A stretch of DNA of 64,000 nucleotides from Acidobacteria bacterium RIFCSPLOWO2_12_FULL_68_19. GTDB taxonomy: Bacteria > Acidobacteriota > Vicinamibacteria > Vicinamibacterales > UBA2999. The notes under the pieces were generated by a model. That model was not told where the DNA came from and ran no database searches. It worked only from the letters and a program-made list of their open reading frames with translations. The position numbers and the translations under genes were made by a program. Shown one piece after another: positions 35,764 through 56,931 of the stretch (position 1 is the stretch's first letter; each line of letters begins with the position of its first letter). Where the stretch lies: positions 1-64,000 of the forward strand of contig MELF01000035.1 of NCBI GenBank assembly GCA_001767525.1, given 5' to 3'.

Positions 35764-35840
35764 CGGGCCACGGGGCCACGGAGGCGCGGAGATCTTGCGT
35801 TGGGATCGCGCCCCGTGTCTCCGGGGCTTCGCGGCTTGCA
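35764..35840. repeat. GGGCCACG word element
   Basis: GGGCCACG is repeated in tandem (35765-35780), and CACGGGG (35769-35775) pairs with CCCCGTG (35811-35817). It fills the gap before the permease gene. Confidence 0.5.
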
Positions 35841-35843
35841 GCC

Positions 35844-38848: not shown

Positions 38849-38869
38849 GAGGCGCCGACTCGCGCCGTG

Positions 38870-39060
38870 GAGATCTTGTCGTTCGCGCTTCTTGCTTCTC
38901 GGTTCTCGGTTCGTGTTCACGTTCGGTGCCGACTTCACGTTCGAGGTGTCCGGATTCTACGGAGTCACAGCCGTGAAGCCGGGAACGCCGAACGCTCGAA
39001 CCCCGAACCGAACATGAACATGAACATGAACACGAACCGAGAACCGAGAACCGAGAAGTG
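38870..39060. repeat. Long word hairpin, 24-bp perfect arms, shares 34 bp with 28374
   Basis: Arm 38896-38919 is the exact complement of 39027-39050. The right side adds extra CCGAGAA copies and a hexamer run ATGAAC (39013-39030). The stretch 38894-38927 is identical to 28374-28407. No gene in it. Confidence 0.85.
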
Positions 39061-39068
39061 TGAACGAC

Positions 39069-39074
39069 TATACT
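39069..39074 (+). promoter_or_regulatory. -10 hexamer TATACT, 6 nt before KBL-type ATG
   Basis: TATACT plus TCCGCC leads to ATG 39081. It decides the start: the upstream in-frame GTG 39060 would place the promoter inside the gene. Confidence 0.6.
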
Positions 39075-39080
39075 TCCGCC

Positions 39081-40265
39081 ATGCGCCGCGATCCGCTCGG
39101 CTATCTCTCCACGGATCTGCAGGCGCTGCGCGATCAGGGCCTCTACCGCCGACTGCGCGTCCTCGACGACGAGCAGAAGCCGCGCACGTCGATCGATCAC
39201 CGCGTCGTCGTCAATTTGTCGTCGAACAATTATCTCGGCCTCACGACGCACCCGAAGCTCCGGGAACGCGCGCTCGACGCCATCCGGCGGCTCGGCGTCG
39301 GCTCGGGATCGGTCCGCACGATCGCCGGCACGATGGCGATCCACGTGGAGCTCGAGCGGCGGCTGGCGGCGTTCAAGCGGACCGAGGCGGCGGTCGTCTT
39401 TCAGAGCGGCTTCACGGCGAACGCGGGGACCGTCGCCTCGATTCTCGGCCGTGACGACGTCATCGTCTCGGACGAGCTCAATCACGCCAGTATCATCGAC
39501 GGCGCGCGCCTGAGCCGCGCCGCCATCAAGGTGTTTCCGCACCGGGACGTCGCCGCGGCGCGGCGGATTGTCGAGGGGCTGCCGCCGGGTCAGCGGACAC
39601 TCCTCATCACCGACGGCGTCTTCAGCATGGACGGCGACCTGGGCGCGCTGCCCGCGCTCTCGGACCTGGCCGAGGAGTTCGGCTGCATCATGATGGTCGA
39701 TGACGCGCACGCCAGCGGCGTGTTCGGAGAACACGGCCGTGGCACGGTCGACCACTTCGGTCTGCACGGCCGCGTCGACGTGCAGGTCGGCACGCTGTCG
39801 AAGGCGGTTGGGGTGCTTGGCGGGTACGTCGCCGGCTCGCGTGGGCTCATCGAGTTCCTCTGCCACCGCGCGCGGCCGTTCCTCTTCTCGACATCGCATC
39901 CGCCGGCGGTGGCCGCCGCCTGCCTGGCGGCGCTCGACGTGCTGGAATCGGAGCCGGAGCTCATCGCGCGTCTGTGGGAGAACACGCGGTTCTTCAAGGC
40001 CGGCCTGGTCAGGCTGGGCTTCGACACGGGCGCCAGCGAGAGCCCGATTACGCCCGTCATCGTCGGCGACGCCGCGCTCGCGATGCGGCTGTCGGATCGC
40101 CTCTTCGACAAGGGCGTGTTCGCCCAGGGAATCGGCTTTCCGACGGTGCCGCGCGGCACGGCGCGGGTGCGGACGATCGTGACCGCCACGCACACCCGCG
40201 AGGAGCTCGAGTTCGCGCTCGACGCCTTCACGGCGGTGGGGACCGAGCTCGGGATTCTAGGATAG
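39081..40265 (+). CDS. Alpha-oxoamine synthase (glycine C-acetyltransferase / AONS family)
   Basis: This 394-aa PLP enzyme condenses an acyl-CoA with an amino acid. Motifs: NLSSNNYLGLTTHPKL, GVGSGSVRTIAGT, TDGVFSMDGDLGALPAL, MVDDAHASGVFGEHGRGT, the PLP lysine in VQVGTLSKAVGVLGGYVAG, and a C-terminal GTARVRTIVTATHTREEL. The TLSKAVGV form is closer to 2-amino-3-ketobutyrate CoA ligase (Kbl) than to BioF, but substrate choice is not certain. Start chosen by the -10 element. There are no biotin or threonine-dehydrogenase genes nearby. Confidence 0.88.
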   Translation: MRRDPLGYLSTDLQALRDQGLYRRLRVLDDEQKPRTSIDHRVVVNLSSNNYLGLTTHPKLRERALDAIRRLGVGSGSVRTIAGTMAIHVELERRLAAFKRTEAAVVFQSGFTANAGTVASILGRDDVIVSDELNHASIIDGARLSRAAIKVFPHRDVAAARRIVEGLPPGQRTLLITDGVFSMDGDLGALPALSDLAEEFGCIMMVDDAHASGVFGEHGRGTVDHFGLHGRVDVQVGTLSKAVGVLGGYVAGSRGLIEFLCHRARPFLFSTSHPPAVAAACLAALDVLESEPELIARLWENTRFFKAGLVRLGFDTGASESPITPVIVGDAALAMRLSDRLFDKGVFAQGIGFPTVPRGTARVRTIVTATHTREELEFALDAFTAVGTELGILG

Positions 40266-40286
40266 CATCAATGCGTAGAGCCTCGA

Positions 40287-42953
40287 ATGGGTCGCCGCCT
40301 GGCTGTCTTGCTCGCGTGCGCCATTGCCTGCCACGGCTCCGCCTCTGCCCAGACCCCGGCGCCAGACGGTGTCGAGCTGCTGCTGGATCGATTCGAAGCG
40401 CTGCTCCAGGCCGGGCGCGCCTCCGACTTCCCGTCGCTCGTCGCCTCGTCGAATCCGACCGAGCAGATTGACGAGTTCACGAGCGGCCTCTTCGCGCCCG
40501 ACACGCGCCGCGCCGTCGTCGTCGAACGTGACCGCGTGCCGCTCGACGGCGTGCTCCCCGGGAACGGCTACCGGGTCATCGCGGAGCTGTTCCTCGAGAC
40601 GGCGGACCGCGCGCGCATCGTCACCACGCTGCTCGACGTGCGGCGCCCCACGGGCGGCGCCCCGGACAGCTGGCGCATCAGCGCGGCGCAGGCCGCCACC
40701 TCCGTCGACGGCCTCTTCCGTCTGCGCGTGAACGCCTCGCGGCAGTTCTCCGCGCGGAACCTGACGATCACCGCGGAGGACCTGCGGCTGACACTCGCCG
40801 ATGGATCCGTGTTCCTCGTCGAGAGCGAGCCGGGCGTCACCGGCCTGATCCTGTTCGGCAACGGCGTGATGCGGTTCGCCCCCGGTCCTGAGACCGAACA
40901 GGGGCAGATGCGGATCTTCGCGGGCGCCGACGTCCTGACCGCGCCCTTCGATACGGCCTTCGTCCGGCTGAACCCGGTCGAGTACGAGGAGCGCGTCAGC
41001 GGCGCGAGCCTCACACCCGCGACCCTCAATCCACGCGAACTGAAGCGCGCGCAGGAACTGCTCGTCCGGGCGGGACCGAAATCGTTCAGCCTCGATCTGC
41101 CGGAGCTGAGCGGCGACACCTGGTACCTGCTGCCCCCGCCGGGCGACTTCCTCGCGGAGGTGCGCACGCGGCGGCACGGAACGCTCACCTACTCGCGCGC
41201 CGCCATGCAGGTGGAGGACATCACGTTGATCGACCGCGAACGGCGGCGCACGATCGCGCTCTACCCGTCGGCCGAGCGGCGAGCGGCGCAGGGCCTCTCG
41301 TTCAACGAGGACGAGCAGCGCGACTACGACGTGCTCGACTACGACATCGAGGCAACCATCCAGCCGCAGACCGATTTCCTCGAAGGGCGCGCGCGGCTGC
41401 GCCTGCGGATGCGGTCGACCGGCGCCACTTCGCTGACGCTCCGGCTGGCCGATGATCTGGCCGTGCGGGGGATCGTGAGCGCCGAGTACGGGCGTCTGCT
41501 GCACCTCCGCGTCCGCGATCAGGACACCGTCATCGTGAACTTTCCGGCGGCACTGTCGGCGGGAACCGACGTGACGCTGGTCGTCTCGTACGCCGGGCGC
41601 ATCACGTGGCAGGACATCGAAGACGAGGCCGTCCAGGCAGGCGAAGACCGGGTGCAGGAAGAACCGGTCGTCATCCCGGCCGAGCCGAGCTTCCTGCTGA
41701 GCAACCGGTCGTACTGGTATCCGCAGAATCCGATTGGGGATTACGCCACCGCCACGCTGCGCGTGACCGTGCCCGAAGGGTACGCCTGCGTGGCGAGCGG
41801 CCAGCCGCGAACCGGCCCCGAGGTCACGCTGCGCGACTTGCTGACGCTCGCCGAGGGGTCCGCGCACGTGTTCACGGCGCGCGATCCGCTGCGGTACTTC
41901 GCCGTGATCGTGAGCAGGTTCGTCCGCGCGGCCGAGTCGACGATCACGCTCGACCCGGGGCTGGGCGATCCGACCGGCGGCGCCGGGGTGAGCGTCGCGG
42001 TCGAGGCGAACCCGCGCCAGCAGGGGCGCGGCAAGACGCTCATCGGCGACGTCGAGGCGATCATGCGGTTCTACGCGGGGCTGCTCGGCGAGGTGCCGTA
42101 CTCGTCGCTGACCGTGGCGCTCGTCGAGAACGAGCTGCCGGGCGGCCACAGTCCCGGCTATGTCGCCGTGCTGAACAACCCGCTGCCCGGCTCGCGGCTG
42201 ACGTGGCGGAACGATCCCGCCTCGTTCTCGGGCTTCCCCGAGTTCTTCCTGGCCCACGAGCTGGCGCACCAGTGGTGGGGTCAGGCGGTCGGGTGGCGCA
42301 ACTACCACGAGCAGTGGCTGAGCGAGGGGTTCGCGCAGTACTTCGCGGCGCTTTACGCGCAGCGCGCCCGCGGCGAGCGGACGTTCGTCGACATGCTGCG
42401 GCAGTTCCGGCGGTGGGCGGTGGCGGAGTCGGACGAGGGCCCCATTTCGCTCGGCTCGCGGCTCGGCCACCTCCGCAGCCAGCCGCGCGTCTTCCGCGCG
42501 CTCGTCTACAACAAGGCGGCCGCCGTGCTGCACATGCTGCGGCGCCTGGTCGGCGACGAGCAGTTCTTCCGCGGGCTCCGGCAGTTCTATGCGGCGCAGA
42601 AATTCCGCAAGGCTGGGACCGACGACCTGCGCGCCGCATTCGAAGAGGTGTCGGGGCGACCGCTCGAACGGTTCTTCGACCAGTGGATCTACAGCGCCGA
42701 GGTGCCCCGCCTCCGCTACAGCTCCGCCCTCGGCGCCGGCACGGTGACCGTTCGGTTCGAGCAGATCGGGGGCGCGCTGTTCGACGTGCCGGTCACCGTC
42801 ACGATCGTGTACACCGACGGTCGGAGGCACGAGGAGGTCGTGCCGGTCACCGACCGGCGAGTCGAGCGGACGATCGCGGCCGACGGTCCGGTCAAGCAGG
42901 TGCAGGTCAATCGCGACTACGCGGCCGTGGCGATTTTCGAGCGTTCGCCGTAG
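40287..42953 (+). CDS. Exported M1 family zinc aminopeptidase
   Basis: This 888-aa protein has a Sec signal ending near residue 22 (SASAQ). An extended N-terminal region (about 25-345) without clear homology precedes the M1 N-terminal beta domain. The catalytic domain has the zinc site HELAHQWWGQ near residue 655 with the third ligand Glu in SEGFAQYF 18 residues later. The GxMEN exopeptidase motif is altered to ENELPGGHSPGY, so specificity may be unusual. The C-terminal beta domain follows. It should act on peptides outside the cytoplasm. Confidence 0.92.
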   Translation: MGRRLAVLLACAIACHGSASAQTPAPDGVELLLDRFEALLQAGRASDFPSLVASSNPTEQIDEFTSGLFAPDTRRAVVVERDRVPLDGVLPGNGYRVIAELFLETADRARIVTTLLDVRRPTGGAPDSWRISAAQAATSVDGLFRLRVNASRQFSARNLTITAEDLRLTLADGSVFLVESEPGVTGLILFGNGVMRFAPGPETEQGQMRIFAGADVLTAPFDTAFVRLNPVEYEERVSGASLTPATLNPRELKRAQELLVRAGPKSFSLDLPELSGDTWYLLPPPGDFLAEVRTRRHGTLTYSRAAMQVEDITLIDRERRRTIALYPSAERRAAQGLSFNEDEQRDYDVLDYDIEATIQPQTDFLEGRARLRLRMRSTGATSLTLRLADDLAVRGIVSAEYGRLLHLRVRDQDTVIVNFPAALSAGTDVTLVVSYAGRITWQDIEDEAVQAGEDRVQEEPVVIPAEPSFLLSNRSYWYPQNPIGDYATATLRVTVPEGYACVASGQPRTGPEVTLRDLLTLAEGSAHVFTARDPLRYFAVIVSRFVRAAESTITLDPGLGDPTGGAGVSVAVEANPRQQGRGKTLIGDVEAIMRFYAGLLGEVPYSSLTVALVENELPGGHSPGYVAVLNNPLPGSRLTWRNDPASFSGFPEFFLAHELAHQWWGQAVGWRNYHEQWLSEGFAQYFAALYAQRARGERTFVDMLRQFRRWAVAESDEGPISLGSRLGHLRSQPRVFRALVYNKAAAVLHMLRRLVGDEQFFRGLRQFYAAQKFRKAGTDDLRAAFEEVSGRPLERFFDQWIYSAEVPRLRYSSALGAGTVTVRFEQIGGALFDVPVTVTIVYTDGRRHEEVVPVTDRRVERTIAADGPVKQVQVNRDYAAVAIFERSP

Positions 42954-42957
42954 TTGA

Positions 42958-42963
42958 TATGAT
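42958..42963 (+). promoter_or_regulatory. -10 hexamer TATGAT, 9 nt before nuoG ATG
   Basis: TATGAT plus CGGCCGGAT leads to ATG 42973. A weak TTTCGA at -35 lies 17 nt upstream. Confidence 0.5.
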
Positions 42964-42972
42964 CGGCCGGAT

Positions 42973-44772
42973 ATGGAAACGGTGACGCTGACCATAGACG
43001 GGCGCACGGTCACGGTGGCCAAGGGAAGGACGGTCCTCCAGGCCGCGATCGAAGCCGGCATCTCCATCCCGTACTACTGCTACCACCCGGGCATCAGCGT
43101 CGACGGCTCGTGCCGCGTCTGCGTCGTGAAGATCGAGAAGATGCCGAAGCTGCAGACGTCGTGCTCGACCGCCTGCACCGACGGGATGGTGGTTTCGACC
43201 CGGGATCCCGAAGTAGTGGACGCACGGGCGGGCGTCTTCGAGTTCCTGCTGATCAACCATCCGCTCGACTGCCCCGTCTGCGACAAGGGCGGCGAGTGCC
43301 CGCTCCAGGATTTCTCGTACACGTTCGGTCCCTCCGAGAGCCGCATGGACTTTCCGCGGCGCGTCTTCGACGGCGCAGGCGTCAAGGGGGACGTCGACTT
43401 CGGGCCGACGCTCATGCTCAACCGCCAGCGGTGCATCCTCTGCACACGCTGCGTCCGCTTCATGCGGGAGATCGATGGCGACGCGCAGATCGGAATCGTC
43501 GATCGCGGCTACGGGAGCGAGATTGCCACCTTCGAGGAACGCGGCGTGCACTCGCTGCTCTCGGGCAACCTGATGGACATCTGCCCGGTCGGGGCGATCC
43601 TGACGAAGGACTACCGGTTCAAGAGCCGGCCCTGGGACAACCCCGGGGTGGTCGACACCCTCTGCACGCTCTGCTCCAAGGGCTGTAATACGAGCGCGTG
43701 GTTGAAGGGAAAGCCGGAGTGGGCGCGCGGATCGCGCCTCATCCGGATGACGCCCCGCTTCAACCCCGAGGTCAACGGCTACTGGATGTGCGACATCGGC
43801 CGCTTCAACTACCACTGGATCGAAGGGGACGCGCGGTTGCGCCGTCCCCTGCTGCGCCGCGGCACGACGCTCGAACCAGCGGCCTGGCACGACGTGCAGC
43901 CGCGCCTGCGCGACCGCCTGCAGGAAGCGGCGGCCGGCGGCGGCGTGCGCTTCCTCGTGTCCGCCCACGCGTCGACCGAAGAGCTCTTCGTCCTCAGGGA
44001 GATGCTGCAGGGCCTGGTCGGCGCCGACGCGCTGCAGGCCGTGACGGTGGCGTGGACGCGCAGCGAGAAGGCGCAGCCGGAACGCACCACGGTCCGTGTA
44101 GCGGCCACGAATGCGCCGAATGTCAACGGCGCGCGCGATCTCGGCTACGACGTCGGGCAGGGCACCGACGGGCCGGCGGATCTCGGCGAGCTGCGCCGCG
44201 CGGTGGAAGCAGGCCGGATAACGGCTGTCTATGTGATCGATTCTGGGCCCGCCGGCGCCCTCGGCGACGTCGGCTGGCTGTCCGCCGCCCGCCAGAGCGG
44301 CACGCTCCCGCTGCTCGTTGTCCAAGCCGTCGTCGAGAGCGAGCTCACCGCGGTGGCGGACTTCGTGCTGCCCGGCGCCACCTCCATGGAGAAGGATGCC
44401 ATCTATACCAACGACCAGGGGCACGTGCAGGCGGCCTCGCGGGCAATCGCCCCACCCGGCGAGGCGCTCGAGGACTGGCAGATCCTGGTCGATCTCGCGC
44501 GGGCGCTCGGCCTGACGATGAGCTACGAGTCGGCCGGCGACGTGCGGCGGGCGCTCGGCGCGGCGATGCCTGGCACGCCGTACGCCGAGGCGGAACGGCT
44601 GCCGTTCACCCAGCCGGTTCCGGCGCGCAACTGGCTCCAGGCGTCGAATCCGTCGGAACGCTGGAAGTGGGACTTCCTCTACCAGGATCTGCCGCCGGTC
44701 AAGGGGCATTCCGTGCAGATGGAGGGCGTGCCGCTCCGTGGCGCCGTGATTCCGCTGAAGCCGGTCGGGTAG
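42973..44772 (+). CDS. nuoG: NADH-quinone oxidoreductase subunit G (NuoG-like)
   Basis: This 599-aa iron-sulfur subunit of respiratory complex I belongs to the peripheral arm. The 2Fe-2S domain has CYHPGISVDGSCRVC. The His-Cys3 cluster is in HPLDCPVCDKGGECPLQDF. The 4Fe-4S domain has RCILCTRCVRFMREI and later CPVGA. The molybdopterin-type domain begins with CTLCSKGCN. The C-terminal part is short compared with E. coli (908 aa) but normal for the shorter NuoG class. No other nuo gene is adjacent, so it is encoded apart from the rest of the complex, or serves a different NAD(P)-linked enzyme. Confidence 0.88.
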   Translation: METVTLTIDGRTVTVAKGRTVLQAAIEAGISIPYYCYHPGISVDGSCRVCVVKIEKMPKLQTSCSTACTDGMVVSTRDPEVVDARAGVFEFLLINHPLDCPVCDKGGECPLQDFSYTFGPSESRMDFPRRVFDGAGVKGDVDFGPTLMLNRQRCILCTRCVRFMREIDGDAQIGIVDRGYGSEIATFEERGVHSLLSGNLMDICPVGAILTKDYRFKSRPWDNPGVVDTLCTLCSKGCNTSAWLKGKPEWARGSRLIRMTPRFNPEVNGYWMCDIGRFNYHWIEGDARLRRPLLRRGTTLEPAAWHDVQPRLRDRLQEAAAGGGVRFLVSAHASTEELFVLREMLQGLVGADALQAVTVAWTRSEKAQPERTTVRVAATNAPNVNGARDLGYDVGQGTDGPADLGELRRAVEAGRITAVYVIDSGPAGALGDVGWLSAARQSGTLPLLVVQAVVESELTAVADFVLPGATSMEKDAIYTNDQGHVQAASRAIAPPGEALEDWQILVDLARALGLTMSYESAGDVRRALGAAMPGTPYAEAERLPFTQPVPARNWLQASNPSERWKWDFLYQDLPPVKGHSVQMEGVPLRGAVIPLKPVG

Positions 44773-44784
44773 TATTGAAGGGGG

Positions 44785-45558
44785 ATGGCAGAGAACGTCA
44801 CGCTGCTCGCGGCGTTCGGGGCGGGACTCCTGTCATTCATCTCGCCGTGTGTCCTTCCGCTGATTCCCGGCTACCTCTCCTACGTGTCCGGCGTGACCGT
44901 CGACGAGATGCGCGGCGGCACCGGACCGCTGACGACGCCGGGGGGCAGTGCCGCCGCGGCGGTGGCCCTCGCGGGGCCCGTGGCCCGGCGCCGGGTCGTC
45001 TTCGCGTCGCTCGCCTTCATCCTCGGATTCTCGATCGTCTTCGTGTCGCTGGGCGCGTCGGCGAGCGCGATCGGCCGCCTGCTGCTGTCGCGTCTGACGA
45101 TCCTCAGCAAGGTGGCGGGCGCCATCATCATCGTCTTCGGGCTGCACACGATGGGCGTGTTTCGCATCGAGTGGCTGTACCAGGAGAAACGCGTGCAGAC
45201 GACGCGCCAGCCGGCCGGGCCCGTCGGCGCGCTCCTAGTCGGAATTGCGTTCGCGTTCGGGTGGACGCCGTGCATCGGGCCGATCCTCGCGGGAATCCTC
45301 GCCATCGCCGCGGCCCAGGACACGGTCGGCGACGGCGTGCGGCTGCTGTCGGCCTATTCGCTCGGCCTCGGCGTGCCGTTCCTGGCGACGGCGCTCGCCA
45401 TCGACCGGTTCTTCGCCGCCTTCGCGCATATCCGCCGGCACTATCACAAGGTCGAAGTCGCCTCTGGCGCGCTGCTCGTCGTCATCGGGGCGCTGATCTT
45501 CACGAACCGGTTCACGGTCATCGCGCAATGGCTCACGCCGTATCTGCCGGTGTATTAG
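44785..45558 (+). CDS. ccdA: CcdA/DsbD-type thiol-disulfide membrane transporter
   Basis: This 257-aa protein has six membrane helices. The redox cysteines are in SFISPCVLPLIPGYLSYVSG (TM1) and FGWTPCIGPILAGIL (TM4), the paired pseudo-symmetric motif of CcdA. It moves electrons across the membrane for cytochrome c maturation. AAGGGGG precedes ATG 44785, which lies 12 bp after nuoG. Possibly co-transcribed with nuoG, which links it to respiration. Confidence 0.93.
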   Translation: MAENVTLLAAFGAGLLSFISPCVLPLIPGYLSYVSGVTVDEMRGGTGPLTTPGGSAAAAVALAGPVARRRVVFASLAFILGFSIVFVSLGASASAIGRLLLSRLTILSKVAGAIIIVFGLHTMGVFRIEWLYQEKRVQTTRQPAGPVGALLVGIAFAFGWTPCIGPILAGILAIAAAQDTVGDGVRLLSAYSLGLGVPFLATALAIDRFFAAFAHIRRHYHKVEVASGALLVVIGALIFTNRFTVIAQWLTPYLPVY

Positions 45559-45612
45559 GCTGCCGTTACCCAGAGTTAACCTTCGGGACATTCGCCGGAA
45601 ATCCGCACGTCG

Positions 45613-45618
45613 TACAAC
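45613..45618 (+). promoter_or_regulatory. -10-like hexamer TACAAC, 7 nt before porin ATG
   Basis: TACAAC plus TGACGGC leads to ATG 45626. The last base departs from the consensus, so this is weaker than the other cases. Confidence 0.35.
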
Positions 45619-45625
45619 TGACGGC

Positions 45626-46750
45626 ATGAATCGATTCCTTCAGGCCGCCGGCCTGCTGCTGGCGTGCGCCTCGCCGGCCGGCGCGCAGACGGCGCCCGCG
45701 CCGGAATCGACCTACGACCGCATCTGGCGCCAGTTCAGCACCATCTACGACGACCGCTCGAACAGCGTGGTGCAGCGCATCCAGCTGAGCGGCCGGTTTC
45801 AGCACGAGTTCGCCACGCTCGACGCGGATCAGGGCGACCACGACGAGTGGAACACGCGCCGGTTCCGAATCGGACCCCGGGTCACGCTGTTCCGCACGTT
45901 CACGGTCTCGGCTGAAGCGGAACTCAACCCTCAGGAGATGGATCCGCTGTACCTGCGATTGACCGACGTCTACGTGCAGTGGAGCCGGAGCGCACGGCTG
46001 GCGGTCACGGTCGGCAAGCAGGGGATGCCGTTCACGATGGACGGCGCGACCTCGTCCAAGGAGCTCCTGACGATCGATCGCAGCAACCTGGCGAACAACA
46101 TCTGGTTCCCGCAGGAGTATCTGCCGGGCGCGAGCCTGTCGGGACGCGTGGCGCCGTGGACCTACCGCGTCGGCGTGTACTCCGCGGGCGAGGCGAACAA
46201 GGAGTTCGGCGGGTTCGACGGCAGCGTCGCGACGCTTGTCGTGCTCGGCTACGACTTCGCGAGCGTGCTCGCAGTGAAGGACGCGCTCCTCTCGGCCAAC
46301 TACGTCTACCAGAACCCGGATACCGACAACACCTTCACGCGGCAGCTCGAGCACGTCCTGTCGATCAATCTCAGGCTGGAAGCGGGTCGGTGGGGGATGC
46401 GCACCGATGTATCAGGCGCAACGGGGTATTTCGGGCAGAGCGACCTGTGGGCGCTCACCGCCATGCCGTATTACAAGGCGACCGACAAGCTGCAGCTCAT
46501 CGGCCGCTACACGTTCCTGGGCAGTGCCGGCCCGAACGGCATCCGCCTCTCGACGTACGAAAACCGCCTCGTCGGCGGCCGCGGCGACGAGTACCACGAG
46601 GTGTATCTTGGCGCCAACTACTTCTTCTACGGCCACAAGCTGAAACTGCAGAGCGGCGTGCAGATGGCGGAGATGCAGGACCGCGCGAACGACGGCGGCG
46701 CGTACTCGGGCGTCTCGTGGATCACGGGGCTCCGCATCGGCTGGCCCTGA
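45626..46750 (+). CDS. OprO/OprP-type porin
   Basis: This 374-aa outer-membrane beta-barrel has a Sec signal (FLQAAGLLLACASPAGAQ) and alternating amphipathic strands throughout. Family phrases are LSGRFQHEFATLDADQGDHDEWNTRRFRIGPRV-type start text, LRLTDVYVQWSRSARLAVTVGKQGMPFTMDG, and a C-terminal YHEVYLGANYFFYGHKLKLQSGVQMAEM. It ends in Trp-Pro rather than the usual Phe/Trp terminus. Probably an anion-selective channel. It is convergent with vapC; the two stops abut. Confidence 0.88.
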   Translation: MNRFLQAAGLLLACASPAGAQTAPAPESTYDRIWRQFSTIYDDRSNSVVQRIQLSGRFQHEFATLDADQGDHDEWNTRRFRIGPRVTLFRTFTVSAEAELNPQEMDPLYLRLTDVYVQWSRSARLAVTVGKQGMPFTMDGATSSKELLTIDRSNLANNIWFPQEYLPGASLSGRVAPWTYRVGVYSAGEANKEFGGFDGSVATLVVLGYDFASVLAVKDALLSANYVYQNPDTDNTFTRQLEHVLSINLRLEAGRWGMRTDVSGATGYFGQSDLWALTAMPYYKATDKLQLIGRYTFLGSAGPNGIRLSTYENRLVGGRGDEYHEVYLGANYFFYGHKLKLQSGVQMAEMQDRANDGGAYSGVSWITGLRIGWP

Positions 46751-47158
46751 TCAGCGGCTCCAGTCTTCGAGGCGAAGCCCGGGGCCGCGCGCCATGTGAT
46801 CGACATTCGCCGTCACCAGGGTCGCGTCCAGAGCAAGAGCGTGCGCCGCGATAGCGGCGTCGACGTCCTCGATGCGAGTTCCCCGCCGCTCCAGCATCGC
46901 CTTGATACGGCCGTACATCTGGCTGACGACATCGGTCCACTCGGCGCGGGGGAGCTCGGTACAGAGGAGATCGAAGCGCGCCTGGAGTGCCGTCCGTCGC
47001 TTCGAGCGCGGCAGCCGCTCGATGCCGAACGCGATCTCCGCCAGCACCGGATGCGGGACGGACACCTCAGGCGGTTCAGTTGCCGCCAGTCGCTCGACGA
47101 CCACCGCGTCGCCCTTCATCAGCGCCGAGATCGCGTTCGTGTCCAGGATGTAGGTCAC
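46751..47158 (-). CDS. vapC: PIN-domain ribonuclease toxin (VapC type), no antitoxin visible
   Basis: This 135-aa PIN nuclease starts at GTG 47158 (VTYILDTNAISALMKG). The four acidic positions are in place: LDTN near 6, AEIAFG near 43, EDVDAAIAAHAL near 98, and TANVDHM near 116. It should cleave RNA. A VapB antitoxin gene would normally sit just upstream, but that space holds the TauE/SafE remnant, which reads straight into vapC in the same frame. It is therefore an orphan, silenced, or controlled by a distant antitoxin. Confidence 0.85.
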   Translation of the reverse strand: MTYILDTNAISALMKGDAVVVERLAATEPPEVSVPHPVLAEIAFGIERLPRSKRRTALQARFDLLCTELPRAEWTDVVSQMYGRIKAMLERRGTRIEDVDAAIAAHALALDATLVTANVDHMARGPGLRLEDWSR

Positions 47159-47389
47159 AGCTCGCGCGGCCGATCGGATCCCGCCCTGATTGCCCACGAG
47201 GCCGCCCAGCAGCCCTGACGCGGCGCCGGCCACCCACGCCACCCAGCCCCGAAACCGCAACTCTGTACCGACAACGTGCGGGATCGAGACGGCGGCCACG
47301 GCGAGCCGTGTGTCGACCTGCAGCGCCAACAGCGGCGTCAGGAGACTGCCGATCCCGAAGCCGGTGACCGCCGCACTCGCCGGCGCCAC
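47159..47389 (-). pseudogene. TauE/SafE sulfite exporter remnant with internal deletion
   Basis: Seventy-seven codons keep two separated pieces of a TauE/SafE permease: TGFGIGSLLTPLLALQVDTRLAVAAVSIPHVV from the N-terminal half, joined directly to RGWVAWVAGAASGLLGGLVGNQGGIRSAA from the C-terminal half. About half of the usual 250 residues are missing between and after them. The frame stays open and continues into vapC without a stop. It is too short to be a working transporter. Confidence 0.75.
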
Positions 47390-47395
47390 GTCGGC

Positions 47396-48526
47396 TCAGC
47401 CCTTGGTCGTCACCGGTGTGCCCGGCCGAATCTCGTCGCTCCCTCGCCGCACAACGATGTCGCCCTCGCGAAGATTGCCGAACACCTCGACCGTGTCGCC
47501 GTTCACCTCGCCGCGCCTGACATCCACCCACTCCGCAATCCCGTTGCGCACCCGGACGACGAACTGGCGCTCGGAGGTGCGGACGACGGCCGTCGCCGGC
47601 ACGAAAAGGCTCGTCTGGGCGCGCGCGATGGGCCATCGCACCTCGGCGTACATCCCCGGGGCGAGCGTGAGCCTGGGATTGGCCACCTCCAGCTCCACCA
47701 GCATGCTGCGGGTCTTCACGTCGAGCGAATACGCCGGGCGCGCGATGGCGCCCTGGAACGTCCGATCGGGAAACGCCGACACGCGGAAGTCCGCTTTCGT
47801 CCCGCGCATGATGGCGCCGACGTACGCTTCGGGGACGGGCACCGTGAGGCGGAGCCGTGACACCTGCTCGATTCGGACCATCGACCCCGCAGAGGGCCCG
47901 ACGAGGCTGCCCGGATGCACGCTCCGCTCCGTGATCACCCCGTCGAACGGCGCCACGATCTCCAGATAGGCTTCCAGCTCCGAGACGGCTTTAGCGCCGG
48001 CTTCTGCGGCCATCCCGCTCTTCATCAGCGAGTCGACCTGCGCCTGTGCCGCCTCGAACGTGCGCGCGGCGATGTCGAGATCGTTGCCGGCCACCACCCC
48101 GGGCGTGGAGCTCGCGGCCTTCAGGCGATCGAACGTGCTCTGGGCCGAGACCATCCGGGCCTGCGCCTCGGCCTGCTGGGCGTGAACGGCCTGCAGCTTC
48201 GCTTCGGCCTCTGCGCGCTGCGCCCGCAGTTCCGGCGCGGACAGCCGCGCCAGGATCTGTCCCTGCTTGACCCACGTGCCCCGGTCGACCGCGATCGACT
48301 CGACGAACCCCTCGACCCTGGCGCGAATGTCGACGGCCTGATACGGCGTCAGGTCGCCGGGCAGCGTCACCGCCTTGTCAAGCCGCTGCGCGACGACCTT
48401 CGTCGTCTCGAGAACCTCCCCCGAACCCGACCGCGCGCCTGGGCTCGCGCTCTGACCTGCAACGGCCGCGCCGCCCACGCACATCACGACGGCAACCGGG
48501 ACGATGACCGCGCGGACGCCCTTCAT
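47396..48526 (-). CDS. RND efflux membrane-fusion (periplasmic adaptor) protein
   Basis: This 376-aa HlyD/AcrA-family adaptor has a signal peptide ([19 protein letters not shown]), a lipoyl/barrel-sandwich half near 60-90 ([25 protein letters not shown]), a helical hairpin (about 95-170), the second lipoyl half ([21 protein letters not shown]), and beta-barrel and membrane-proximal domains to the end. It connects the RND pump with TolC. ATG overlaps the pump stop (ATGA), and it is last in the padR-tolC-RND-MFP cluster. Confidence 0.94.
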
Positions 48527-51500
48527 GCCCGCTCTCCTGAGTAGTGGCGGCTCATGAGGTCGTCCGGGTCGAGCGAAGGAGACACCACGCCGGCGCGGCG
48601 CTGCACGAGCGCGAACAGCGCGGGCAGGACCAGCAGCGTGGTAATTGTCGATGCCGCCAGTCCTCCGATCACCGCGCGGCCGAGCGGCGCCAGTTGCTCG
48701 GCGCCCATGGCGACCGGAATCATTCCCGCGATCATCGCGAACGTCGTCATGAGGATGGGCCGCAGGCGGCTCGTGGCGCCGCGGACCGCCGCCGCGTCCG
48801 CCGCCGCGTCCGCCGCCGCGCCCTCCTGCCGGTACTGCTCGGCGAAGGTCGCGAGCAGGATCGCGTTGGCGACCGCCACGCCGATCGCCATGATCGCCCC
48901 CATGAAGGACTGCACGTTCAGCGTGCTTCCCGTCAGGAGCAGGCCGAGCGCGACGCCGGCCATCACCGCCGGGATCGTGCCGATGACAATGAGTGCGATC
49001 TTGAGAGACTGGAAGTAGGCTGCCAGCAGCAGGAAGATCGCCACAATCGCCAGCGCCAGTCCGACTCGGAGGCCGTCGAGCGTCTGCTGCATCGGCGCCA
49101 CCTGGCCGCGCACGCTGACGGTGACGCCGGCGGGCGGATCGCCGGCCCGGGACACCGCGGCCAGCACCTCGTTCGACGCGGTGCCGAGATCCGCGCGGTG
49201 CACGTTGGCGGTCAGCGTGATCATGCGCTGCTGGTTGTAGCGGGTGTATTCGCCGACGGCCGTGCCCTGCGACACCGTCGCCACGTCGCCGAGCAAGGGC
49301 CGCGGGGCGCCGTTCTGCATGACGGGCACGTTGATGACGTCTTCGACCGATGACATCACGTGCTGCGGGACTTCCACCTGCACCTGATAGGCGATGCCCG
49401 TACTGGGATCGGCCCAGTAGTTGGGGGTCACGAACCGGCTCGACGAGGTGGCGGCCACGAGCGAGCGGCCAACGTCCTCGACGGTGACGCCCAACTGGCC
49501 CGCTCGTTCCCGGTCGATCTGGACCTGGAGCACCGGATAATCGAGCGCCTGCCCGAACTGGAGATCCCGCAGGGCCGGAATCTTCGCCATCTCGACCCTG
49601 AGCGTATCCGCGTAGGCGCGGCTGGCGGTGAGATCCGCACCGGTCACCGCCACCTCGATCGGGGTAGGCGACCCGAAGCTCATGACCTGGTTGACCAGAT
49701 CGGCCGCCTCGAACGACACGACCGCGCCCGGGGCGATCTCGTCGATCCGGGTCCGCAGCCGCTCCTGGAGGGCTTCGATGGAGACGTTCCGATCGGGTCT
49801 CAACGACATCAGGAGCACGGCTTCGTGTGGACCGCTGGTCCAAAGATGAATGAGGTTTACCGGATAGCTCGACGGCTGCGAGCCGACGAAGCCGAGGCTG
49901 GCCTGCACGTTCTCGGGGCCCACCTCCCCGGCGATCGCGTCGAGCACGTCGAGGGCCATTCCTTCCGTTCGCTCGACGCGCGTGCCGGTGGGCGCCCGGA
50001 GGCGGAGCTGGATCTGCGCCGAGTCGGCGCTCGGGAAGATTTCCGTCCCCAGCGCGCCACCGACGAAGTACACCACGGCCGCTGACACAACGAGGTACAC
50101 CGCCAGGACCGCCCAGCGCAGGCGCACGCCGGCGCTCACGACCCGGCCATACAGGTCTCGAAACCGCTCGAACAGGCCGCCAGCCGTGGATCCATGATGC
50201 TCGCCGCCGATCCACGTGTAGAGAATGGGCACGAACGTGAGCGCCAGGAAGTACGAGGCGGCCATGGCAAAGCCGACCGACAGCGCCAGCGGGACGAAGA
50301 GCGCCCGCCCGACCCCCACCATGAAGAACGACGGCGCAAACACCGCCAGCACGCAGAGCATCGCGAGCATCATCGGGACGGCCACTTCCCCGACCGCATC
50401 GAAGACGGCCCGCGCCCGCGGCTTGCCGCACGCCAGGTGGGTGTGGATGTTCTCGATGGCCACCGTCGATTCATCGACCAGAATCCCGATGGCCAGCGTC
50501 AGCCCCCCGAGCGTCATGATGTTGATCGTCTGCCCCGCGCCCCAGAGCGCGACGACCGCCGCCAGCAGCGCGAGTGGAATCGTGAGCACCACGATGACGG
50601 CGCTCCTGACGTGCCCCAGGAACAGCAGCACCATCAGACCCGTGAGCAACGCCCCCAGCGCGCCCTCGGTGACGAGCGAGCGAATGGCGCCGGTCACGTA
50701 CCCGGACTGATCGAACGCGAGGTTCACGTCGATGTCGTCGGGAATCGCCGCACGCATGCGCGGCAGGTCCGCGGTCACGGCCTGGACGACGGCCAGCGTG
50801 GATGCGTCGGCCCGCTTCGTCACGGGAATGTAGACGCTGCGCTTGCCGTTGATGAGCGCGTAGCTGGTCAGGATGTCGGAGGCGTCTTCGACGTACCCGA
50901 CGTCGCGCAGGAACACGGTCGGGCCGGCGCCGACGCGGACCGGGATCTCCATTAGCTCCTGCACGTTCGGGACGACCGAGTTGACCGGCACCATCCGCGT
51001 GAAGTCGCCGATGCGCACGTTGCCGGAGGGCGTCACGAGGTTGCCCCGCGTCAGCGATTGGACGACTTCGTCGCCCGACATGCGATAGGCGCGCAGCCGA
51101 TCCGGATCGACACGCACCACGATGGTGCGTTGATTGCCCCCGAACGGCGGCGGGGCCGACACGCCGGGCAGCGTGCCGAACATCGGGCGGATGCGGTTGA
51201 GGGCGAGATCCTGAATCTCCCCCAGCGCCCGCGTCTCGCTCGAAAAGACGAGATAGCCCACCGGGACGCTCCCCCCGTCGAAGCGCATGACGAACGGCGG
51301 CACGGTGCCCGGCGGCATGAAGGCCCGGGCCCGATTGACGTAGCCGACCGTCTCGGCCATCGCCTGGCTCATGTCGACGTCTTCGTGGAAGAAGAGCTTG
51401 AGGAGCGTCGCCCCCTGAATCGATTTCGACTCGACATGCTCGATGCCGGTGACGTACAGGAAGTGGTACTCGTAGTAGAAGGCGATGTAGCCTTCCATCT

Positions 51501-51672
51501 GCGCCGGATCCATTCCACCGTACGGCTGGGCGACGTAGATCACCGGCGTCCCGAGATCCGGGAAGATGTCGATCTTCATCCGCTGCACGGCCAGCAACGA
51601 CATCAGGGCGACGCCGATGATGGCGATGAGGATCGTGACGGGTCGTCGCAGTGCCGCGCGGATCAACCACAT
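48523..51672 (-). CDS. RND-family efflux pump permease (HAE/CusA-like)
   Basis: This 1049-aa inner-membrane transporter has 12 membrane helices with two large periplasmic loops. The N-terminus [34 protein letters not shown] is typical. TM4 carries [21 protein letters not shown], where the usual DD/DG pair is DE. A run [11 protein letters not shown] near residues 950-962 is a short imperfect repeat in a cytoplasmic loop (48787-48822). Substrate unknown; proton-driven export with the adjacent adaptor and TolC is expected. 55 bp separate it from tolC, a gap filled by a word element. Confidence 0.95.
48787..48822. repeat. 12-bp tandem GCCGCCGCGTCC within RND gene
   Basis: About three copies in frame encode alternating Ala/Asp ([10 protein letters not shown]) in a loop before a membrane helix. 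Probably replication slippage. Confidence 0.5.
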
Positions 51673-51683
51673 GGGATGATCCC

Positions 51684-51720
51684 TCCGGCTTCTGGCTTTG
51701 GGCTTCGGGCTTCAGGCGGC
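51684..51720. repeat. GGCTTCGGGCTTCAGGC word element between tolC and RND genes
   Basis: GGCTTCTGG, GGCTTTGGG, CTTCGGG and CTTCAGGC words lie in tandem in the 55-bp intra-operon gap. The 11-mer 51707-51717 is identical to 10005-10015. Confidence 0.5.
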
Positions 51721-51727
51721 ATTGGTC

Positions 51728-53170
51728 CTATTTCAACAACTCGGAAATATCGCCGCGGGCGGCGGCGACGGCGGCGAGCGCACGCCACACCCCGAGCCGT
51801 GCCACGGCATCCCCGACTTCCGACTGCAACAGCAGCCGCTGGGCATCCGCCACTTCGATGATCGTCGTCAGGCCCGCCTCGTATCTGGCGCGCGACTGCT
51901 GTTCCAGCACCCGCGCCGCCGTCAACTGAATCGGCGTGTTCTGGGCAACGCGGCGCGCCCCGTCCATCTCGGCGCGGGCCTGCTCCGACTGGGACGACAA
52001 TTCCTGGACGAGGCGGTCGTAGCTGGCGAGCTCGGCGCGCTCGTTCTGCGCCTCCATGCGCGTCCGCTCGCGCACCGCAAACCAGTCGAAGAGAGGAACC
52101 GTCGCCGTCAGGCCGGCGGCCCAGTTCGGCGTGTCGAAATCAAGCCCGCGTCCACCTCCGAGTGTGGCTCCGTTGGCCAGGGCACCGCTGCCGCGCACCG
52201 AGTAGGCCGTCTGGAAATGGATGCGTGGCACAGACGACCGGCCGAGCACGCTCTGCAGGGCACGGCTCGACGCGACCGCCGCCATCTGCGTCTCGGCCAG
52301 CGGATGCGCCGCCACGACGGGCGGGGCGATGGGCGGCGACGGCGCCGTTTCCAGCAGAGGCGCTGCCGCGATCTGGACTCCGGATGGAGCGACGCCGAGC
52401 CACTGCGCCAGATTCGCCCGGGCGATCTGCTCGGCCTGTTCGGCCTGGATCAGCTGGATCCGGGCCAACGCCAGCTCCGCCTGGGCTCGAGAATCGTCGG
52501 CGCCGGGACGCAGCTCGTTCCTGACGAGCACGGTCACAGCGCCGGCGAACACCTGCTGCCGTTCCACGTTCGCGCCCGCGGCGCGGACCGTCTCCTGAGC
52601 GACCGCGAGCCGGAGGAAGGCGTCCGCCGTCCTGACCCCCACCTCCAGCCGCGTCGCGGCGGCGCCCGCGCGGGCGCGTGTGACCTCCGAGTGCGCGAGT
52701 CCGACCGTGGCGCCGCGCAACCCGAAATCGAAGGCTTCCCATGAGAGCAGCAGGCCGGTGGCACTGCCCCAGATACTGGACGACGACACCGAGTCGGACA
52801 CCGGGCCCGAGATCGAAGGAACGGGCGTTCCCGGGAGCAGCAACCCGACGACGTTGTTCCGGGTCGCCCGGTTGATCTGGATTCCATAGTCGAGGCGCGG
52901 CAGATACGTCGTGCGCGCCAGGTCCACACCCGCCTGCTGCGCCGAGACCCGGGCCAGCGACGCCTGAATCGCCGGATAGCGCTCGATGGCGTACTGAACC
53001 GCCTGCTGCAGGGTCAGCGGGGACGGCGGCGCCTGCGCGTGGACGCGCGAGAGCGCCCCGGCAAGGACCAGCGCGAGGCAGAGCGCGAAGGAGCGGGCGA
53101 CGGGCGCCAGAGCGAGCCGTGGCGAGAATCGAATATCGCCACCGCGTGACGATATCGAACTTCGATACAC
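51728..53170 (-). CDS. TolC-family outer-membrane efflux protein
   Basis: This 480-aa protein has a signal peptide ending near residue 45 (RVHAQA), two internally repeated helical segments (SPLTLQQAVQYAIERYPAIQAS; RTADAFLRLAVAQETVRAAG; then the second half from about 260) and coiled-coil Ala/Gln-rich hairpins typical of TolC. It is the outer-membrane channel for the RND pump. GTG 53170 is the only usual start in frame before the signal. It lies 6 nt after the TAGAGT -10 hexamer, so the mRNA would be leaderless. The PadR operator covers the first codons. Confidence 0.9.
   Translation of the reverse strand: MYRSSISSRGGDIRFSPRLALAPVARSFALCLALVLAGALSRVHAQAPPSPLTLQQAVQYAIERYPAIQASLARVSAQQAGVDLARTTYLPRLDYGIQINRATRNNVVGLLLPGTPVPSISGPVSDSVSSSSIWGSATGLLLSWEAFDFGLRGATVGLAHSEVTRARAGAAATRLEVGVRTADAFLRLAVAQETVRAAGANVERQQVFAGAVTVLVRNELRPGADDSRAQAELALARIQLIQAEQAEQIARANLAQWLGVAPSGVQIAAAPLLETAPSPPIAPPVVAAHPLAETQMAAVASSRALQSVLGRSSVPRIHFQTAYSVRGSGALANGATLGGGRGLDFDTPNWAAGLTATVPLFDWFAVRERTRMEAQNERAELASYDRLVQELSSQSEQARAEMDGARRVAQNTPIQLTAARVLEQQSRARYEAGLTTIIEVADAQRLLLQSEVGDAVARLGVWRALAAVAAARGDISELLK
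53153..53167. promoter_or_regulatory. Perfect palindrome TATCGAACTTCGATA, probable PadR operator
   Basis: Seven-bp arms around a single C lie 9 bp inside the -10 box, over the first tolC codons. An imperfect related site (CGATATTCGATT on the minus strand) lies at about 53126-53141. The adjacent padR gene is the obvious candidate ligand. Confidence 0.7.
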
Positions 53171-53176
53171 TCGCGC

Positions 53177-53205
53177 ACTCTACTGCGGCGCCAGCAAACG
53201 GTCAA
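53177..53205 (-). promoter_or_regulatory. tolC-RND-MFP promoter TTGACC-17-TAGAGT
   Basis: -35 TTGACC (53200-53205) and -10 TAGAGT (53177-53182) are separated by 17 bp, the best sigma-70 match in the window. GTG of tolC follows 6 nt later. Confidence 0.75.
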
Positions 53206-53233
53206 GAGCTTTGGCGGAACGAAGAAGCGGGGG

Positions 53234-53545
53234 CTACTCGACCTCGAACAATTCGCCGAAGAGTTCCCGGACCTTGGCCTTGGCGGCGATCAGGGCGCGC
53301 CGGCCGGCCGGGGTCAGCCGGTAGAGGCGGCGCGTGTGGCGGCCGTTCCGTTGCTCGGTGGCCCGGAGATACCCCTTGGCCTCGAGTCCGTGGAGGATGG
53401 GGTAGAGGGTGCCTGCGCTCGGGCGATAGCCGTGCCGCGACAGTTCTTCGATCATGCCGAGGCCAAAAATCGTCCCTTTCTCGGCATGGTGGAGGATATG
53501 CAGGCGAATGAGGCCGGAATAGAGATCCCGATCGTCCCTCGGCAT
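53234..53545 (-). CDS. PadR-family transcriptional regulator
   Basis: This is a 103-aa winged-helix regulator. Signatures: LYSGLIRLHILHHAEKGTIFGLGMIEELSRHGYRPSAGTLYPILHGLEAKGYLR, then RLYRLTPAGRRAL. It lacks a long C-terminal dimerisation helix beyond KVRELFGELFEVE, as in subfamily 2. It probably represses the efflux operon that starts 60 bp downstream, with ligand release by a pump substrate (inference). ATG 53543-53545 begins the conserved text MPRDDRDLYSG. Its upstream gap contains the OmpR-type direct repeat. Confidence 0.93.
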   Translation of the reverse strand: MPRDDRDLYSGLIRLHILHHAEKGTIFGLGMIEELSRHGYRPSAGTLYPILHGLEAKGYLRATEQRNGRHTRRLYRLTPAGRRALIAAKAKVRELFGELFEVE

Positions 53546-53621
53546 GGGCAATGGCTCGGCGGCCCGGACAGCAATTGCCAACGGCACGTTCGGAAGCCTA
53601 CTCCCGCCGGGCCTGCGGAGT

Positions 53622-53640
53622 TGTAAGGATCCTGTAAAAA
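53622..53640. promoter_or_regulatory. Direct repeat TGTAAGGA-N3-TGTAAAAA upstream of padR
   Basis: Two TGTAA boxes are 11 bp apart, the geometry of OmpR/PhoB-family dimers. It lies between the TonB-receptor stop and padR. The same arrangement is at 56957-56975. Confidence 0.6.
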
Positions 53641-53649
53641 CTTCCCTGA

Positions 53650-56600
53650 TCAGAACGTCAGCCGCAGGCCGAACTGCATCTCCCGGGGATTCCTGGCGCT
53701 GAAGATGCGCCCGAAGTTCGGCGTGCCGAAGATGCGGTTCGGCAGATCGAAGTTCGCACGGTTGAAGAGGTTGAACACCTCCCAGCGGAACTCGAGCTCC
53801 GACGCTCCACGGACCGCCCAGGTCTTCGCCAGCGCGATGTCCATGGTGGCATGGCCCGGCCCGATCACGCTGTTCCGGCGGGCGCTGCCGAATCCGAACG
53901 GCGCCGGCAGCGCGAACGCACCGGTGTCGAACCAGCGGTCGGGAGTCCGTTGACCTCGTGGCAGGTTCGGGCTGCGGAGCTGGTCGGGCCGCTGCGCCGG
54001 GCCGGCGCCGATATTCGCGTGATCGACGCCGAGGTTTACGGTGAACGGTGCGCCCGATTGCGCAATGAAGACGCCGTTGACACGCCATCGCCCGAGCACG
54101 CTCTCGACCAGCCCTCCCGCACCGGCGAAGAACGGGAGCTGATACACGCCGCTGGCAACGAACTGATGGCGATGGTTGAAGCTCGATGTCGCCCACTCGC
54201 CGGTTTCATCGAAGATGTTGCGGACGTCCTGGGGCACGTTGGCTTCCGACTCCGTCGGGCCCGGGCTGGACGCGTCGTCGGTGGAATCGGAGAGCGTATA
54301 GCTGGCCGTGTACGCGAAATCCTGGCGGAACCGGCGCTCCGCCTTCAACGTGAGCGCGTGATAGATCGACTTGCCATCGAACCTGATGGCGTTGATGCGG
54401 CTCAACGCGGGGATCGGCCGGCGGAGCTGGATCGGGCCCGGGCCCGGTTCCGGGATATTGCGAAGCGTCGCGTTGTCGGCGCCGACCGTCCACGTGCCCA
54501 TGTAGGACGTCTCGATCATCGTGCCCGGCAGGATCTCGTACTGCAGGCCGCCGCTCCACGTCTGGCTGTACTCGACGTTGTATTCGTAATCCATAATGCC
54601 GGCGCCCACGGTCCCCATGGCGGGACTGGTGAGGATGTCGCGCGTGGTGTCCGTCGGCACCCGCGCATCGACGGGCACGTCCACCTGTCTGGTGAAGAAG
54701 AACGGCAGGTTGCGGGCGAAGGCGGTCTGGACGCTGTAGGCCCACTGATTCAGGAAGATCCCGTAGCCGCCGCGGATCACGGCGCGCGAATCGTCCAGCG
54801 TCAGCGCGAATCCGGCCCGCGGCGCCAGCCGCACGGCGCTTGGGTCGAGCAACCCGCGCCCCCACCCGATTTCTTCCGCCGTGACATACGGAATCGGCAG
54901 CAGCGGCAGCAGCGGCTGTGCGCCCGGATGGACGGCGTGACCGGCGATGACGAATCGTCCGCCCGGCGCAGACACGTCGACCGACGACAGCCGATCGTCC
55001 ACATCGTACATGTGCTGATTGAACTCGTAGCGGACCCCGACGTTCACGGTCAGGTTGCTCCGCGGCTGCCAATCGTCTTGCGCATAGAGGTGGAGCCAGT
55101 TCGTGCGCCCGTTCTCGTCGCCGCGACCGATGCCCGCTGTCGCCGAGGTCGGATACCCGAGCAGGAAGTCCGCGAATGCGTTGCCGGTGAACTGACCCGT
55201 GTAGGTGAACGCGCCGCGGGCGTACTCGGGCTGCTCGGGACGCAGTCGGAGGTGGAAGTAGTAGGCGCCGAACTTGAGGCGGTGCGCGCCTCGATCCAGC
55301 GTTACGTTGTCGTACAACTCGAAATGCCGGTTGTCACGATAGACGAACGACGTCGGGTCTCCGATGGTGCTGTACTGGCCTCCGAACGAGACCTGCGGGA
55401 AGCCCGCGTCCCGAGGGTCGCGCGTGATCCCAAGCAGTCCGGTCGCGCCGGCGAAATCGACGCCCCGGTTCACGCTGGTCTGCCCACCCGCGACCGACAT
55501 CCAGCCGAACCGCAGCTCGTTCAGCAGCGCCGTGCCGAACACGTGCGTATGGCTGAGCATCATGTTGCGCGTCCGGGTGGTCAGCGATCGGCCGAAGCCT
55601 GGCACCAGCGCCTCCTGCAGGGCGCCGGCCCCGAACGGCTGGACCTCCTCGGCGTCGAACGTGCTGACCCGGCCGAAGATCTGGCCGGCGTTTCCGATCC
55701 TGTGATCGATGCGGAGGCTGATCTGATCGACCCCGCGGTCCTGCTCCTCCACGGACGTCAGGTTCTGCACGGCTCCCGCCGACGTCGGCATCGGCACGCG
55801 CGCCAGCAGCGCCGCCGCGATCGGATCGATGCGATTGGCAGGAATGCGATTGCCGGGAAACGGCGCGCAGGCGCCCGTCGAGGGGATGGTCAGCGGGTCG
55901 CAGGTGGGCGCGAAGGAGGAGAAATCACCGGCTCGAACCTCTGGCGGCGGCACCGAGAACGTCCGGGTCAGGGAACGCCGCATCCGCTGTCCTTCGTAGC
56001 TGCCGAAGAAGAACGTGCGATTCTGCATCACCGGCCCGCCGAGCGCGCCGCCGAACTGATTCTGGCGCAGCGCCCGGATCGGCTCACCGGGCGGATGGAA
56101 GTAGTTCGGCGAGTCGAACGCCTCGTTCCGGTGGAATTCGAACGCGCTGCCGCGCACGACGTTCGATCCGGCCCTGGTGGCCACATTGATCAGCGCCGAC
56201 GCCTTCCCGCCGAATTCTGCCGGGTACATTGATTTCTGGATCTTGAACTCCTGGATGGAATCGACCGACGGATTGATCACGAGATTGTTGAAGAGCTCGT
56301 CGGTGACCTTGGTGCCGTCCAGAAGGTAGATGTTGTGGCCTGAGCGCTGCCCGCCGACGTTCGGCAGCGGCCCCGCCTGCTGCAGCGCGTCGCCCCGGGT
56401 GCCGCCTGGCGGGATCACGACAGCGTCGCTCAATTGCGCCAGGGAAAGGAAGTTCCGCCCGTTGAGCGGGATCTGGACGACTTCGCGGTTCTCGATGACG
56501 TCGCTGATCTCGGCGGTGGCCGTCTGGAGCAGCGGCGGCCGGCTTTCCACGACCACCCGCTCGGCAAGACCCTCGACGCCGAGCGTGAATTCGAGCGCCA

Positions 56601-56907: not shown

Positions 56908-56914
56908 ACGAAGG

Positions 56915-56921
56915 CCCCCCT
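56915..56921 (-). promoter_or_regulatory. Shine-Dalgarno AGGGGGG placing the CTG start
   Basis: AGGGGGG lies 7 nt before CTG 56907 in the 24-bp gap after the kinase stop. It is the best ribosome-binding site for the receptor gene and decides the start. Confidence 0.55.
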
Positions 56922-56931
56922 GATCCGGAGG

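What the first reader, a model, noticed from the sequence alone, without database searches (positions are those of the whole stretch)
46751..47389. Orphan VapC toxin reading out of a collapsed TauE/SafE gene
The PIN nuclease keeps all four acidic residues, but the usual vapB position is filled by a sulfite-exporter remnant with a large internal deletion, and the two are in one open frame of 212 codons. Either a membrane-tethered fusion nuclease is made from GTG 47389, or a recombination event removed the antitoxin and left vapC.
Basis: partly seen in the sequence, partly recalled or inferred. Interest (0 to 1): 0.55.

Follow-up and report, generated by a model that had tools for sequence, protein, structure and literature searches.

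The report
Toxin gene stranded by deletion scar
A bacterial RNA-cutting toxin gene has lost its antidote gene through a patchwork of deletions that joined it to scraps of a membrane-transporter gene; it is most likely a recent rearrangement scar rather than a new kind of fused protein.

Summary
On the minus strand at 46751-47389 one open frame of 212 codons joins two pieces of a TauE/SafE transporter gene to a complete VapC-type PIN nuclease. The one same-genus genome held has the whole tauE at the corresponding place. Of 22 other copies of this vapC in the order, 20 keep a vapB that overlaps it by 4 nt, one has intact vapB with frameshifted vapC, one a deletion through both. In the window only the last codons of vapB (PREL-stop) remain, joined to tauE. 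No cognate VapB was found elsewhere in the genome. The tauE pieces diverge almost only silently (26 silent, 6 replacement changes), so the deletions are probably recent. Best reading: illegitimate deletions brought the end of an RND-pump operon, tauE fragments and vapC together, removed vapB, and left a vapC with intact catalytic residues, probably silent or weakly expressed. A membrane-tethered fusion nuclease is not excluded, but open frames of this length are common in this 69% GC sequence and no second genome with the fusion was found. Orphan toxins are a known, common kind.

The parts
46751..47158 (-). vapC: complete PIN-domain toxin gene, 135 codons plus stop, native start GTG 47156-47158
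   Evidence: PF01850 E 3e-12 on 46751-47161; best NCBIfam model NF047863 tRNA(fMet)-specific VapC E 9.1e-23, 81 bits, below its cut-off of 140; same length as in G020, G007 and L027, one codon longer than in L026
47155..47169 (-). remnant of the vapB 3' end (PREL and stop TGA); its stop overlaps the vapC start (4 nt)
   Evidence: CCGCGCGAGCTGTGA is identical to the vapB end of L027 and G007
47164..47259 (-). tauE fragment 2 (about codons 120-150 of 243)
   Evidence: 90% identical DNA to G035 tauE, L071 1243-1338
47256..47390 (-). tauE fragment 1 (about codons 13-56); the join to fragment 2 has 4 nt (TGCG) common to both sides in G035, 189 nt deleted
   Evidence: 84% identical DNA to L071 923-1057
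46751..47389 (-). the 212-codon open frame that spans tauE fragments and vapC
47396..48526 (-). HlyD/CusB-type membrane fusion protein of an RND pump; 6 nt lie between its stop and GTG 47389
   Evidence: PF16576 E 2.8e-31; orthologue in G035 C103
48523..51672 (-). RND pump, AcrB family
   Evidence: PF00873 E 4.1e-184
45626..46750 (+). convergent porin (PF07396); its stop abuts the vapC stop with no base between
   Evidence: orthologue in G035 C58, on the contig that holds the intact tauE

Best explanation
The locus is a rearrangement scar. The ancestor shared with G035 had tauE between the RND-HlyD operon and the convergent porin, perhaps with the neighbours it has in G035 (doxX before it; DUF1554, cytochrome b561 and molybdopterin-oxidoreductase genes after it). 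A vapBC module with RHH-type vapB came to lie there. Several illegitimate joins then removed the start of tauE and whatever lay before it, 63 codons inside tauE, and everything from tauE codon ~150 to the last four codons of vapB. vapC is left whole but without antitoxin and without its usual overlap with a translated vapB. Shown: the pieces, the joins, the loss of the vapB body, no other cognate VapB found. Inferred: the former presence of vapBC at this very site, the order of events, that vapC is silent or only weakly made (possibly by restart after HlyD as a 212-aa chimera), and that no working toxin-antitoxin system remains.
For: Window 31097-46750 and 47510-59509 align block by block, in order, with G035 contigs C58 and C103; between them lies the scrambled stretch (1-31 kb was not compared). 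G035 C58 has intact tauE 888-1619 with part of a SAM-HAT gene and doxX before it and DUF1554, cyt b561 and Oxidored_molyb after it. 20 of 22 other vapC copies have a vapB frame ending 4 nt into vapC; G152 has intact vapB with frameshifted vapC, G147 a deletion joining the first ~43 codons of vapB to vapC near codon 31. No cognate VapB in G000: best E 0.23 with one sequence, 0.0043 with profile A1; the same profile gives E 1.5e-40 or better in 5 of 5 genomes chosen because they have the module, though four of those five VapBs are rows of the profile and only G155 is not. tauE scraps against G035: 26 silent, 6 replacement changes, dN/dS 0.07; if they evolved freely since the deletion, this lasted at most about 28% of the window's own branch (95% bound, equal branches assumed). 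No sigma-70-like promoter or terminator-like site in 46600-47600.
Against: vapC shows no clear decay: pairwise dN/dS 0.09-0.14 against four close relatives, within their own range; 8 private residues against 6, 3, 1 and 2 in G020, G007, L026 and L027, the highest count but with fewer private bases than G020 (27 against 31). An orphan toxin that is expressed should be costly. Both the tauE-tauE and tauE-vapC joins are in frame (1 in 9 by chance). No genome with an intermediate state was found. doxX adjoins tauE in 3 of 12 tauE loci compared (G035 itself, L029, L030) and the downstream genes only in G035, so those neighbours may never have been here; in G034 a paralogous RND-HlyD pair lies directly convergent with the porin.
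Confidence: 0.75

Rival explanations
1. A membrane-tethered fusion nuclease: translation restarts at GTG 47389 after the HlyD stop and makes TauE hydrophobic segments joined to an active PIN domain, held at the membrane or restrained in cis by the N-terminal part.
For: One open frame; AAGGG 10 nt before GTG 47389; mean Kyte-Doolittle up to 1.57 over 19 residues within residues 1-40, close to the usual limit of 1.6 (recalled); both joins in frame; dN/dS of the tauE part is low; EzeT is a solitary toxin restrained in cis (PMC4803016, passages).
Against: Open frames this long are common here; the fusion was not seen in the other 161 genomes of the order or among 18 genome-contig loci; low dN/dS is equally explained by recency; no stretch passes the recalled 1.6 limit; structure prediction uninformative, mean pLDDT 46.7.
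Confidence: 0.07
2. Assembly artefact: pieces of strains with and without tauE/vapBC were joined wrongly. Whether the genome is a metagenome assembly is not stated.
For: Up to four joins within about 650 bp; no reads can be seen; the genome is in 52 contigs; the named close relatives are MAGs.
Against: Read against relatives, not the true parents, the tauE-tauE join shares 4 nt, tauE-vapB 1 nt (about 6 if the lost tauE base differed from G035) and vapC-porin none, shorter than the k-mers assemblers use (recalled); the HlyD-tauE join could not be read. Flanks align with G035 over about 15.6 and 12 kb and the contig is 143 kb.
Confidence: 0.08
3. A solitary vapC kept in use, translated from its own GTG 47156-47158 and neutralised in trans by an unrelated antitoxin.
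For: vapC intact, dN/dS like that of paired relatives; the genome has other, distant VapC-like genes with upstream frames that I read as antitoxins (L002, L003, L005, L006); solitary MazF of Myxococcus is a precedent (PMC4803016, passages).
Against: No VapB of this group found elsewhere; overlap with vapB and its upstream context lost, no promoter-like site.
Confidence: 0.1

Closest known systems
VapBC type II toxin-antitoxin module with RHH (CopG-type) VapB
   Same: vapC of the same length, 84% identical to the closest paired relative (L026) and 44-81% to the other full-length copies translated; the 4-nt vapB/vapC overlap is still visible
   Different: vapB deleted except its last codons
Orphan (solitary) type II toxins in MAGs, survey PMC12654330 (passages: 4386 orphan toxins in one marine set, 72 in Acidobacteriota)
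   Same: toxin gene without neighbouring antitoxin
   Different: here the deletion that orphaned it can be read base by base; the survey's authors allow that partners escaped detection
EzeT-type single-chain toxin with cis antitoxin (PMC4803016, passages)
   Same: solitary toxin with an N-terminal extension in one chain
   Different: the extension here is a transporter scrap with no evidence of an inhibitory role

Membership tests
VapC PIN toxin | PIN domain with conserved acidic residues | tested here: met
   PF01850 E 3e-12; D83, E118, D177 invariant in 9 rows, D197 present
VapC PIN toxin | member of the tRNA(fMet)-specific VapC equivalog | tested here: inconclusive
   NF047863 81 bits, cut-off 140; ten PDB sequences matched, best E 2.3e-13, several named tRNA(fMet)-specific VapC
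VapBC toxin-antitoxin system | adjacent cognate VapB antitoxin | tested here: not met
   only PREL-stop left; no cognate found elsewhere, with partly circular positive controls
VapBC toxin-antitoxin system | toxicity neutralised by partner | not testable with these tools
   needs expression tests
TauE/SafE transporter | full-length membrane domain (243 aa in G035) | tested here: not met
   about 75 of 243 codons left; Pfam 12.1 bits, cut-off 32.6
membrane-tethered fusion nuclease | fusion conserved in more than one genome | tested here: not met
   22 of 162 genomes of the order have this vapC at E <= 1e-25; the window alone has the tauE part

The most novel reading that the evidence does not exclude
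The in-frame chimera is made and used: transporter membrane segments anchor a PIN ribonuclease at the membrane and hold it in check in cis, replacing the lost antitoxin.
Probability: 0.04. Interest if true: 0.6.

Novelty: new member of a known kind. Interest (0 to 1): 0.2.

Why it matters
It is a legible, probably recent case of how a toxin becomes orphaned: the antitoxin is removed by deletion while the toxin keeps its catalytic residues. The two damaged copies seen in relatives went the other way: the toxin is broken and the antitoxin kept wholly (G152) or in part (G147). It warns annotators not to call such a frame a fusion protein. If the toxin proves active and expressed, the locus would be a simple test of how cells tolerate antitoxin loss.

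Tried and rejected
Unlinked VapB: searched with one sequence and with an 11-row profile. Of the four weak profile matches two were looked at (L108, L109): small RHH-like ORFs each followed by an ORF that I read as an unrelated toxin partner (no family search made). L107 and L110, and the two matches (L086, L087), were not looked at.

Structure prediction of the fusion on a 9-row alignment was too poor to use (mean pLDDT 46.7). No fold search was run; the second job was not used.

One search used a VapB query translated in a wrong frame (its translation holds stops), so its VapB20 rows are meaningless and were dropped. In one search the tblastn step with VapB gave no hit for any locus, also where VapB is plain to see, so it too was disregarded; the VapB reading rests on the frame translations printed there. 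Only one of these VapBs was tested against Pfam (G007, RHH_1); 11 were aligned; the rest are read by their likeness.

Rows merged before the count of 22: L026 = L088 and L027 = L091, L028 = G007 (identical vapC). G136 has two copies. In one search the first look scored at most 19 candidates per genome.

The DNA search of G000 with the G035 stretch scored 40 of 252 first-look candidates, so genes diverged beyond DNA similarity may be missed.

Papers: five searches. No paper held all of 'PIN domain', 'membrane-anchored', 'VapC', 'transmembrane'. Two papers were seen in passages only; OrtT (PMC4344625) only in a listing with the start of its abstract.

Full report
What is there. The minus-strand frame 46751-47389 is open for 212 codons from GTG 47389. 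Residues 78-212 are a complete VapC-type PIN protein with its own GTG at 47156-47158. Ten PDB sequences match it, all VapC or toxin chains, several named tRNA(fMet)-specific; NCBIfam NF047863 matches at 81 bits, under the cut-off of 140.

The upstream half is transporter debris. The 189 nt between the parts are missing, as are the first 12 and last 93 of 243 codons. The first join has TGCG in common between both sides; the second, tauE to vapB, one certain base, or about six if the lost tauE base differed from G035; the vapC-porin join none. These were read against relatives, not the true parents. The HlyD-tauE join could not be placed. The vapC stop abuts the porin stop with no base between.

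Comparison with relatives. The window aligns in blocks, in order, with G035 contig C58 from 31097 to 46750 and with C103 from 47510 to 59509. That the two contigs are neighbours in G035 is inferred from this; the gap between them is not seen. The end of C58 has part of SAM-HAT, then doxX, tauE, DUF1554, cytochrome b561 and a molybdopterin oxidoreductase. doxX adjoins tauE in 3 of 12 tauE-bearing loci compared, G035 included; the downstream genes were seen beside tauE only in G035, so they may be gains of G035. A DNA search of the window's genome with this G035 stretch recovers only the tauE scraps, a tauE paralogue on C49 and DUF1554-like matches on C47, C4 and C51 (DNA likeness only). In G034 a paralogous RND-HlyD pair lies directly convergent with the porin, so the older history of the spot is not settled; but the tauE scraps themselves show that tauE was here.

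The antitoxin. In the order, 22 of 162 genomes (own included) have this vapC at E <= 1e-25, 23 copies in all. Leaving out the window, 20 of 22 copies have a VapB frame ending 4 nt into vapC; one (G152) has intact vapB and a frameshifted vapC; one (G147) has a deletion that joins about 43 codons of vapB, out of frame, to vapC around codon 31. The VapB of G007 matches RHH_1 (PF01402, E 3.3e-6). The window keeps CCGCGCGAGCTGTGA, identical to the vapB end of G007 and L027. So a vapB stood upstream of this vapC and was removed. No other copy was found in the genome: best E 0.0043 by profile, against E 1.5e-40 or better in 5 of 5 genomes known to have the module; four of these five VapBs are rows of the profile, G155 is not.

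Timing and constraint. The tauE scraps differ from G035 by 26 silent and 6 replacement changes (dN/dS 0.07; porin 0.14, CcdA 0.19, part of HlyD 0.14). Had they evolved freely since the deletion, this could have lasted at most about 0.28 of the window's own branch (95% Poisson bound, equal branches assumed). vapC dN/dS to four close relatives is 0.09-0.14, among those relatives 0.09-0.17; the window has 8 private residues against 6, 3, 1 and 2, and 27 private bases against 31 in G020. One of them, F99V, lies next to a conserved aspartate. This fits either recent orphaning or continued use; it cannot tell them apart.

Is the fusion a gene? The window has 108 ORFs of 212 aa or more, 72 of them mostly inside a longer one, so the open frame alone says little. 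Two in-frame joins have a 1 in 9 chance. AAGGG lies 10 nt before GTG 47389 and the HlyD stop 6 nt before it, so restart after HlyD is possible. No promoter-like site was found in 46600-47600, though only the sigma-70 type is scanned. The fusion was seen in no other genome. The predicted structure was unusable.

Verdict. Orphan type II toxins in MAGs, including Acidobacteriota, are already reported as abundant (PMC12654330, passages).

Noticed in passing
L104 (G147:C112), about 1370-1800: vapBC remnant in which a deletion joins the first ~43 codons of vapB to vapC around codon 31, out of frame: the first catalytic residue of the toxin is lost.
   Followed up: partly
L105 (G152:C252): Intact vapB followed by a frameshifted vapC.
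   Followed up: partly
L074 (G034:C56:45000-60000) 4292-9749: A paralogous RND-HlyD operon (57% and 51%) directly convergent with the porin orthologue, while the closer HlyD orthologue sits on C60 beside a PadR-like frame (my reading) and a SAM-HAT gene.
   Followed up: no
G000 C25, C6, C29 (L002, L003, L005): Distant VapC paralogues in the same genome; upstream frames read like AbrB-type, not RHH, antitoxins (my reading, no family search).
   Followed up: partly
window 46748-46753: Porin and vapC stop codons abut back to back (TGATCA) with no terminator-like site found in 46600-47600.
   Followed up: partly
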